A stretch of DNA of 32,414 nt from Streptomyces apricus (GTDB lineage Bacteria > Actinomycetota > Actinomycetes > Streptomycetales > Streptomycetaceae), in contig NZ_VDFC01000046.1 in assembly GCF_008369065.1 (NCBI RefSeq), positions 1,242,067 through 1,274,480 of the forward strand. Direction: 5' to 3'. Position numbers and translations under genes: made by a program. Below, one piece after another: positions 947 through 8,265 of this stretch (positions within the stretch are counted from its first letter, which is position 1; the number at the start of each line of letters is the position of its first letter). Under the pieces are notes generated by a model, which was given only the letters and a program-made list of their open reading frames with translations, was not told the DNA's origin and ran no database searches.

Positions 947-3832
<2,886 letters not shown>

Positions 3833-3879
3833 GATCCTCAAAGCTCCATCGATCGTCTCTGCCAGCGGCTCGGGAAATG

Positions 3880-3903
3880 AAAAAACCCCTCGCACAGGAG
3901 GGG
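3880..3903 (-). terminator. Attenuator terminator upstream of leuS
   Basis: On the minus strand CCCCTC-CTGTGC-GAGGGG forms a 6-bp GC-rich stem followed directly by six T residues: a textbook intrinsic terminator. It lies between the leader peptide (stop at 3949) and the leuS start (3832), so it would stop transcription before leuS unless an alternative structure forms. Confidence 0.85.
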
Positions 3904-3917
3904 ACGCCGCGCCGATG

Positions 3918-3942
3918 CCGGTCGCGGTTTTCCGGCGACCGG
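3918..3942 (-). promoter_or_regulatory. Upstream (pause-type) hairpin of the leuS leader
   Basis: On the minus strand CCGGTCG pairs with CGACCGG, and an inner CGG-AAAA-CCG stem closes the loop. It starts 7 nt after the leader-peptide stop codon, where a pause/antiterminator hairpin would sit in a ribosome-mediated attenuator. The role is inferred; the inverted repeat is plain in the sequence. Confidence 0.6.
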
Positions 3943-3948
3943 GTGTGA

Positions 3949-3987
3949 TCAGCGCGGCTCGCTAAGCAGAAGGCGTACAGCACGCAT
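3949..3987 (-). CDS. leuS leader peptide (12 aa, Leu-Leu-Leu)
   Basis: The short frame ATG 3987 to TGA 3949 encodes [12 protein letters not shown], with consecutive Leu codons CTT-CTG-CTT. It lies 117 nt before leuS and is followed by two hairpins, the second with a T-tract. Such an order (short ORF rich in the regulated amino acid, pause hairpin, terminator, biosynthetic or synthetase gene) is the known layout of ribosome-mediated attenuation. Ribosome stalling at the Leu codons when Leu-tRNA is scarce would favour leuS transcription. No ribosome binding site is seen. A TACCCT -10 element ends 6 nt before the ATG, so the leader mRNA is probably leaderless. Two of the three Leu codons are CTT, which is rare in this GC-rich genome and could sharpen stalling. 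Confidence 0.8.
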
Positions 3988-3993
3988 GACGTC

Positions 3994-3999
3994 AGGGTA
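3994..3999 (-). promoter_or_regulatory. Predicted -10 box of the leuS leader transcript
   Basis: TACCCT on the minus strand ends 6 nt before the leader ATG. No good -35 is visible in the GC-rich sequence upstream. The remaining 260 bp up to the redox gene start at 4260 hold no gene that I can support; they presumably carry the divergent promoter of that gene. Confidence 0.4.
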
Positions 4000-4259
4000 C
4001 CGCAGCGGCCGCGCGGGGCGCGACGCGCTTTCGGCTACGCTCCGGCACTGAGTGCCGCTCCCGCTCGCTCCCGCACCCGGTCGGCGAAATGCCGGACAGA
4101 GGTCGAGGGTTACTTCGCGTAAGGGCTCCTAAGGGACATCACAACTCCCTCACCGCCCTTTGATAACAGCGATATAACTCAAACCTCGTACTGATCGGTA
4201 TGGCTCGACCTAGAGTGCGGCAGCGGGACCGCTTTCCCGAACTGTTCGGAGTTGCCCCC

Positions 4260-7333: not shown

Positions 7334-7367
7334 TGCCGTACGACGAACTTCTCACGGCCAAATCCTG

Positions 7368-7440
7368 TGGAGCTAAGGAGAATTGAACTCCTGACCTCCT
7401 GCATGCCATGCAGGCGCTCTACCAACTGAGCTATAGCCCC
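7368..7440 (-). tRNA. tRNA-Ala (anticodon GGC), copy 1
   Basis: The minus strand folds as a full 73-nt cloverleaf. The acceptor stem is GGGGCTA/TAGCTCC, the D stem GCTC/GAGC, and the anticodon stem CCTGC/GCAGG with loop ATGGCAT giving anticodon GGC. A 5-nt variable loop, T stem AGGAG/CTCCT with loop TTCAATT, and discriminator A follow. CCA is not encoded. It is identical to the copy at 8193-8265. Confidence 0.97.
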
Positions 7441-8185: not shown

Positions 8186-8192
8186 CGAGATG

Positions 8193-8265
8193 TGGAGCTA
8201 AGGAGAATTGAACTCCTGACCTCCTGCATGCCATGCAGGCGCTCTACCAACTGAGCTATAGCCCC
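8193..8265 (-). tRNA. tRNA-Ala (anticodon GGC), copy 2
   Basis: 73 nt, base-for-base identical to 7368-7440, with the same cloverleaf and GGC anticodon; CCA not encoded. It has its own promoter and terminator, so the two copies are separate transcription units 825 bp apart in the same orientation. Confidence 0.97.

What the first reader, a model, noticed from the sequence alone, without database searches (positions are those of the whole stretch)
3880..3999. leuS is preceded by a Leu-Leu-Leu leader peptide and an attenuator
A 12-codon ORF ([12 protein letters not shown]) with CTT-CTG-CTT is followed by a pause-type hairpin (3918-3942) and an intrinsic terminator with six Ts (3880-3903), all before leuS. 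Two of the three Leu codons are CTT, which is rare at this GC content and so should stall readily. Seen: the ORF, both hairpins, and the T-run. Known: ribosome-mediated attenuation with this layout controls amino-acid genes, including in Actinobacteria. Inferred: leuS is induced when Leu-tRNA runs short. The leader ATG appears leaderless (-10 box 6 nt upstream).
Basis: partly seen in the sequence, partly recalled or inferred. Interest (0 to 1): 0.8.

Follow-up and report, generated by a model that had tools for sequence, protein, structure and literature searches.

The report
Leucine-sensing attenuator before leuS
A short RNA leader with a tiny leucine-rich peptide gene and a terminator sits in front of the leucyl-tRNA synthetase gene and very probably lets the cell make more enzyme when charged leucine tRNA runs short; this is already published for Streptomyces, but the same element turns out to be much more widespread and seems to lack the usual overlapping antiterminator.

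Summary
Confirmed, and already in print. A 2005 comparative paper predicted attenuators before leuS in two Streptomyces. A 2021 S. lividans RNA-seq paper reports the identical peptide [12 protein letters not shown], leaderless, followed by a hairpin and U-run. The coordinates in the finding are right. The leader is present in 109 of 109 genus loci examined.

New here. (1) A model built only from the genus finds the element in 39 of 110 other genomes of the class; 38 of the 39 are shown to precede leuS. (2) A broader model also hits cimA, ilvB and leuA leaders of the same layout. (3) The stem a stalled ribosome would release covaries, and abuts the terminator with 0-2 unpaired bases in 170 of 171 sequences folded, one unassigned. 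(4) No helix sharing a terminator strand is supported, so the 'classical' label is not fully met. (5) leuS uses CTG for 76 of 76 Leu codons, 17 other window ORFs for 384 of 621.

Best reading: ribosome-mediated Leu-tRNA attenuator. How the stem stops termination is open, and folding does not settle the sign; steric blocking is proposed.

The parts
3994..3999 (-). -10-like box TACCCT, 6 nt before the leader ATG
   Evidence: TAnnnT at this offset in 104 of 109 genus loci, at most 1 of 109 at 40 control offsets; TAnnnT is the published S. lividans -10 (PMC8079986, passages)
3949..3987 (-). leader peptide [15 protein letters not shown], 12 codons, probably leaderless
   Evidence: same peptide in 61 of 109 genus loci and in S. 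lividans leuL2 in print
3964..3972 (-). regulatory codons CTT CTG CTT
   Evidence: CTT 101 and CTC 8 of 109; CTG 107 and CTT 2 of 109; CTT 109 of 109
3948..3958 (-). 5' strand of the switchable stem P1 (segment B; last base of the Glu codon, Pro-Arg-stop and one base more)
3918..3942 (-). inner hairpin H2, variable and dispensable
   Evidence: stretch shortened to 24-32 nt in 9 of 109 genus loci
3906..3916 (-). 3' strand of P1 (segment C), ending 2 nt before the terminator core
3886..3903 (-). intrinsic terminator hairpin CCCCTC-CTGTGC-GAGGGG
   Evidence: same 18 bases in 98 of 109 genus loci; stem covaries class-wide
3880..3885 (-). U-run of the terminator
947..3832 (-). leuS, leucyl-tRNA synthetase, 961 aa from ATG 3832; all 76 Leu codons are CTG

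Best explanation
It is a ribosome-mediated transcription attenuator that reads leucyl-tRNA charging and controls leuS. Shown (by sequence, comparison or published RNA-seq in S. lividans): a leaderless 12-codon ORF with three Leu codons (two of them rare CTT), then a strongly conserved, covarying stem P1 whose 5' strand starts about 5 nt after the last Leu codon, then an intrinsic terminator directly against P1, then leuS. Inferred: with enough Leu-tRNA the ribosome runs to the stop codon and covers the 5' strand of P1; P1 cannot form, the terminator completes and transcription stops after about 108 nt. When Leu-tRNA is short (probably the isoacceptor reading CTT/CTC) the ribosome stalls on the Leu run with its front edge just short of P1; P1 forms and RNA polymerase reads on into leuS. 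Because P1 and terminator share no strand, I propose that P1 hinders the terminator by standing flush against its base at the polymerase exit, not by taking one of its arms. Attenuator with induction on Leu-tRNA shortage: about 0.75 (lowered from 0.8, see evidence against); the steric step alone about 0.35.
For: Leader in 109 of 109 genus loci examined, Leu1 CTT/CTC, Leu2 CTG in 107, Leu3 CTT in 109. Class alignment of 49: 96.6% of 880 cells paired, 15 of 22 pairs with a change on both sides (6 in P1, 5 in the inner hairpin, 4 in the terminator), 0 of 500 shuffles as high; slides by 1-3 columns pair 41-50% (the alignment was fitted to the model, so counts lean towards it). The P1 strands pair better than 95% of shuffles in 60 of 62 sequences (62 of 72 rows passed its terminator rule). 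Where the leader stops one codon after the Leu run (L130, L140, L148, L155) the P1 strand lies behind the stop codon, sharing its last base, but keeps its 5 nt distance to the Leu codons, so P1 is kept as RNA, not as peptide. Folding with assumed ribosome-covered bases: median P1 pair probability 0.96 stalled at Leu1, 0.00 at the stop (171 sequences). 38 of 39 class hits outside the genus precede leuS on the same strand; the contig of the 39th ends first. All 16 fetched non-leuS hits precede branched-chain genes (15 by family scan, 1 by eye), with leaders holding the fitting codons by eye. leuS avoids CTC/CTT (76 of 76 CTG), unlike valS, a probable ileS and rpoB. Published leaderless start and hairpin with U-run in S. 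lividans.
Against: Apart from the S. lividans RNA-seq start, no expression, term-seq or starvation data for this leader were seen. At equilibrium the terminator forms in every ribosome state in most sequences (median pair probability 0.997-0.999), so the anatomy does not show that P1 prevents termination. Where it weakens, it does so against my sign: below 0.9 in 24 of 171 with the ribosome at the stop (21 of them genus), 4 of 171 when stalled at Leu1, 8 of 171 without ribosome (in 10 of 171 rows the start or stop frame in the stretch is doubtful). For S. coelicolor ilvB and leuA, codon mutations reported by others did not fit classical attenuation (as told in PMC1262725). The leuS codon bias is weaker in the class: median CTC+CTT share 0.16 with the element (n=33) against 0.23 without (n=37), p=0.003 with no correction for kinship; 9 of 33 and 2 of 37 are at or below 6% (10 low-G+C rows of 80 left out).
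Confidence: 0.75

Rival explanations
1. Classical strand-sharing attenuator: an antiterminator helix takes one arm of the terminator when the ribosome stalls.
For: Seliverstov et al. 2005 call the leuS leaders of S. coelicolor and S. avermitilis classical, with antiterminator and terminator hairpins (the figure itself is not held). In Corynebacterium ilvB-II the terminator's right shoulder is drawn pairing with the P1 loop (PMC10272879, parts 1-2 of 4 read). Segment C can pair with the terminator loop (GCGCGG with CTGTGC) in the genus, and in L102 stem and loop change together (by eye).
Against: In 62 of 72 class-wide sequences tested, the stretch from base 27 of the leader to segment C pairs with the terminator's 5' arm and loop, and with its 3' arm and tail, more weakly than shuffles (mean +2.4 and +1.5 kcal/mol; 0 and 2 of 62 in the best 5%). 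Segment C with the loop is 0.65 kcal/mol better than shuffles, 2 of 62 in the best 5% (simple letter shuffles, 40 each). Loops such as CTGAGC put a mismatch into that pairing.
Confidence: 0.2
2. P1 is an RNA polymerase pause hairpin: it holds polymerase in the terminator loop so that ribosome and polymerase keep step, and release or not of the pause sets the outcome.
For: By eye P1 ends about 10 nt before the CTG of the terminator loop, close to the spacing recalled for hairpin pauses; P1 abuts the terminator in 170 of 171 sequences, one unassigned.
Against: The loop varies class-wide. A pause alone does not explain how termination is avoided.
Confidence: 0.15
3. Reverse sign: P1 favours the terminator by tying up segment C, so leader translation to the stop raises leuS.
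For: P1 and terminator are compatible at equilibrium, and the terminator is weakened more often with the ribosome at the stop (24 of 171) than stalled at Leu1 (4 of 171). With B covered, C can form a weak hairpin with the loop in some of 15 sequences (L012, L101, L108, L111).
Against: The weak hairpin is -5.1 against -10.1 kcal/mol for the terminator core and is not conserved. It would make a synthetase gene fall when its product is short.
Confidence: 0.13
4. No regulation: an ordinary terminator and a chance ORF in front of leuS.
For: No functional data seen.
Against: Conservation and covariation across the class, fixed place before leuS, same layout before cimA, ilvB, leuA.
Confidence: 0.02

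Closest known systems
leuS attenuators of S. coelicolor and S. avermitilis (Seliverstov et al. 2005, PMC1262725) and leuL2 of S. lividans TK24 (PMC8079986)
   Same: Same gene, same leader; the S. lividans peptide is letter for letter [12 protein letters not shown], leaderless, with hairpin and U-run (passages).
   Different: The 2005 paper calls it classical and gives it, for leuS, in two Streptomyces only. Here the element is found across the class and no strand-sharing antiterminator is supported.
ilvB-II motif of Corynebacterium (PMC10272879, parts 1-2 of 4 read)
   Same: uORF with branched-chain codons, stem P1 over the uORF, then a terminator stem P2; less reporter expression in rich medium, in B. 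subtilis as surrogate. The leuS-derived model also hits ilvB leaders in other genomes.
   Different: There an antiterminator is drawn between P2's right shoulder and the P1 loop; the like pairing is not supported here.
trp/leu attenuators of enteric bacteria
   Same: Leader codons sense aminoacyl-tRNA; a ribosome at the stop masks a strand that a ribosome stalled earlier leaves free; sensitive codons in the leader (PMC1183508, passages).
   Different: There antiterminator and terminator share a strand (recalled); here they abut.
LEU element of actinobacterial leuA
   Same: Leader with a Leu run; in the window's own genome MRYGLLLLSCRGEGL precedes a leuA-like ORF (L186, by eye).
   Different: Per PMC1262725 a pseudoknot whose base stem pairs the Leu codons with the Shine-Dalgarno box, and per PMC8079986 without a typical terminator; leuS has a plain stem and a terminator.

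Membership tests
Classical ribosome-mediated transcription attenuator | Leader ORF with codons for the cognate amino acid | tested here: met
Classical ribosome-mediated transcription attenuator | Intrinsic terminator between leader and gene | tested here: met
Classical ribosome-mediated transcription attenuator | A stem open to form with the ribosome stalled on the control codons and masked with it at the stop | tested here: met
   computed with assumed footprints: median P1 0.96 against 0.00
Classical ribosome-mediated transcription attenuator | Antiterminator and terminator mutually exclusive through a shared strand | tested here: not met
   a weak or kinetic alternative is not excluded
Classical ribosome-mediated transcription attenuator | Read-through rises when the amino acid or its charged tRNA is short | not testable with these tools
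   needs reporter or term-seq
T-box or any Rfam 15 family | Match to a curated covariance model | tested here: not met
   at gathering score only two tRNAs in the window; none up to E=5 in 3700-4100
LEU element (leuA) | No terminator | tested here: not met
   a terminator is present
LEU element (leuA) | Base stem of the Leu codons with the Shine-Dalgarno box | not tested
   looked at by eye only

The most novel reading that the evidence does not exclude
Actinobacterial branched-chain attenuators (leuS, leuA, ilvB, cimA) share one design that is not the textbook one: the stem released by the stalled ribosome does not pair with the terminator but is built flush against its base, and stops termination by steric blocking in the polymerase exit channel, with a spacing of about 5 nt from the last sensing codon to the stem acting as the ruler.
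Probability: 0.3. Interest if true: 0.7.

Novelty: already known. Interest (0 to 1): 0.45.

Why it matters
The local feature is known. What would matter is the generalisation: one conserved RNA layout before leuS, cimA, ilvB and leuA across the class (and in a few genomes labelled same phylum only), not matched by any Rfam 15 family in this window, in which switch stem and terminator abut and do not share a strand. That would be a second way to build a ribosome-read transcription switch, and it is easy to test by changing the gap. The leuS codon choice (only CTG, while the leader reads CTT) points to which Leu-tRNA is sensed.

Tried and rejected
Rejected readings: pairing of segment C with the terminator loop as antiterminator (looked good in the genus and in L102; not upheld class-wide). 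Pairing of the Leu codons with the terminator's 3' arm (leader with that arm is 0.83 kcal/mol better than shuffles on average but only 3 of 62 in the best 5%; with the 5' arm +0.12, 3 of 62). Pairing of the Leu codons with the leuS 5' region was only looked at by eye. An extended P1 taking part of the terminator's 5' arm (seen for some of 15 sequences, gain about 1 kcal/mol in L002) was not pursued. A first test of the terminator's 3' arm gave the same answer.

Weak spots: R2 was built from class hits, so the 59 of 118 is not independent (R1, genus only: 47 of 118). 90 of 110 genus loci came from a query holding the leader. The gap of 0 in 143 of 170 rests on minimum-energy folds; the stricter count of gap bases pairing with the tail is 20 of 34 outside the genus (34 of 62 rows fitted the rule; permuted mean 12.4, highest 18) and 61 of 109 in the genus (permuted mean 50.4, highest 58). 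The automatic codon-to-stem spacing takes CTT/CTC/CTG/ATY/GTT in any frame; it gives 5 nt in 98 of 109 genus and 25 of 45 other leuS rows, 5 of 8 cimA, 1 of 5 ilvB, 1 of 2 leuA; part of the rest is artefact by eye, so the 5-nt rule is firm only for leuS. The 17 comparison ORFs were picked by a third-position G+C rule, not by annotation. The valS, ileS and rpoB counts were not tied to the matched frame (valS was wrong); one search replaces them and covers the matched stretches only; ileS is my own naming. Of 199 genus genomes, 110 loci were studied and L063 dropped for lack of the LeuS anchor; G001 and G045 matched neither the DNA nor the LeuS N-terminus. Of 65 class genomes without a hit beside leuS, 46 leuS upstream regions were re-searched at E up to 1: one weak hit (L246, E=0.09); 19 were not. 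One weak non-leuS hit (G291:C15) was not fetched. Lopatovskaya et al. 2010, which may hold more leuS cases, was seen only in reference lists. That no paper describes the cimA case rests on two searches of one open-access library.

Full report
What is there. The minus strand holds, in order, a TACCCT box (3999-3994), a 12-codon ORF starting 6 nt later (3987-3949, [12 protein letters not shown]), an inner hairpin (3942-3918), a terminator hairpin with six T (3903-3880) and leuS, taken from ATG 3832.

Already in print. Seliverstov et al. 2005 (PMC1262725; parts 1 and 2 of 3 read) predicted attenuators with leader peptide, antiterminator and terminator before leuS in S. avermitilis and S. coelicolor. 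The S. lividans TK24 reannotation (PMC8079986; passages) lists leuL2 before leuS as [12 protein letters not shown], leaderless by RNA-seq, followed by a hairpin and a stretch of U. The finding is therefore known. The S. clavuligerus term-seq paper (PMC8269248; passages) does not name leuS in its main text.

Genus (presumed Streptomyces; genomes unnamed). A 291-nt query matched 197 of 199 genus genomes. Of 110 loci taken, 109 had a usable LeuS anchor and all 109 carry the leader; 20 of them were found by LeuS protein from the weakest genomes. Codons: Leu1 CTT 101, CTC 8; Leu2 CTG 107, CTT 2; Leu3 CTT 109; stop TGA 109; terminator identical in 98. The window's exact peptide is in 61 of 109. The -10 motif sits 6 nt before the ATG in 104 of 109, which fits the published S. 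lividans promoter spacing.

Class. A covariance model from 50 genus sequences hit 47 of 118 genomes of the class at E up to 0.001: 8 of 8 of the genus and 39 of 110 others. Of these 39 loci, 38 have LeuS on the same strand behind the hit, of a closer (about 64-70% identical) and a more distant (about 35-48%) type; in one the contig ends first. A second model from 49 sequences, 39 of them these, hit 59 of 118 and added 6 leuS cases, so 52 of 118 are verified before leuS, plus one unverified; in 6 genomes the only hits lie before other genes. In a phylum sample of 119 it hit 10; four of these are labelled same phylum only: two before leuS, one before leuA, one before an ilvB-like ORF that lies second behind the leader. 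In a named collection nine exact matches to a core pattern were all in Actinomycetota, among them Kineosporia and a Sporichthyaceae MAG.

Same layout before other genes. All 16 fetched non-leuS hits precede branched-chain genes: 8 citramalate synthase (TIGR00977 best), 5 acetolactate synthase directly and 1 with it second (by eye), 2 isopropylmalate synthase (partial proteins, so below full-length cut-offs). Leaders fit: Ile runs before cimA (LLIIGRRAG, SIIT, MIII, GIIIN), ILVL-type before ilvB, LLL before leuA. One further weak hit was not fetched.

Structure. On the class alignment (49 sequences) 15 of 22 pairs show a change on both sides, 47 such cells, shuffled mean 11.9, none of 500 shuffles as high. 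B with C pairs better than 95% of shuffles in 60 of 62 sequences; of the helices tested that would take a terminator arm or loop, none does so in more than 3 of 62. P1 and terminator are separated by no unpaired base in 143 of 170 folds, by one in 5 and two in 22 (1 of 171 unassigned). Four leaders end one codon after the Leu run, with the P1 strand behind the stop at the same distance, so the distance from sensing codon to P1 is what is kept.

How it may work. With assumed ribosome footprints (front edge at base 28 of the leader when stalled at Leu1, 12 nt past the first base of the stop codon at the stop), P1 is on when stalled (median 0.96) and off at the stop (0.00), while the terminator stays paired in most sequences in all states; it falls below 0.9 in 8 of 171 without ribosome, 4 stalled and 24 at the stop. 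So the state of P1 follows translation as in textbook attenuators, but equilibrium folding gives no antitermination, and the 24 against 4 leans to the reverse sign. I still infer induction on shortage, from the physiology of a synthetase gene and the parallel leaders, and that P1, formed first and flush with the terminator's base, keeps the terminator from closing its last pairs at the polymerase exit. This is a proposal; pause-hairpin, strand-sharing and reverse-sign readings remain.

Codon choice. leuS has 76 CTG of 76 Leu codons; 17 other gene-like ORFs in the window have 384 CTG, 221 CTC, 8 CTT, 7 TTG, 1 CTA (Fisher p=3e-15). Matched stretches of valS have 43 CTG and 25 CTC, of a probable ileS 44 and 27, of rpoB 48 and 45. 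The leader's CTT is read, by recalled wobble rules, by the same tRNA as CTC; leuS avoids both. Selective charging theory (PMC1183508, passages) makes sense of a leader that uses a sensitive codon. In the class the link is weaker. I made no literature search on leuS codon use.

Verdict. After re-checking I lowered the main confidence from 0.8 to 0.75 and raised the reverse-sign rival from 0.10 to 0.13 because.

Noticed in passing
L166, L171-L174, L177, L178, L180 (upstream of citramalate synthase): Ile-rich leader peptides with the same stem-and-terminator layout before cimA; not found in print in two library searches.
   Followed up: partly
window 947-3832 (leuS): All 76 Leu codons of leuS are CTG, unlike other genes of the genome that were counted.
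   Followed up: partly
L186 (G000:C251 near 1203564): A leuA-like ORF of the own genome is preceded by a leader MRYGLLLLSCRGEGL, close to S. lividans leuL1 (by eye).
   Followed up: no
window 7367-7440 and 8192-8265, minus strand: Two tRNA-Ala (GGC) genes about 0.8 kb apart.
   Followed up: no
downstream of the terminator in L120, L121, L123, L125, L133 (L122 and L130 similar): After the U-run these non-genus leuS leaders keep a CATGTCCGGA stretch whose role is unclear.
   Followed up: no
class genomes: Over a 171-aa LeuS N-terminal query the class falls into two kinds of LeuS (62% identical or more, and about 42-52%); the element precedes both kinds.
   Followed up: no
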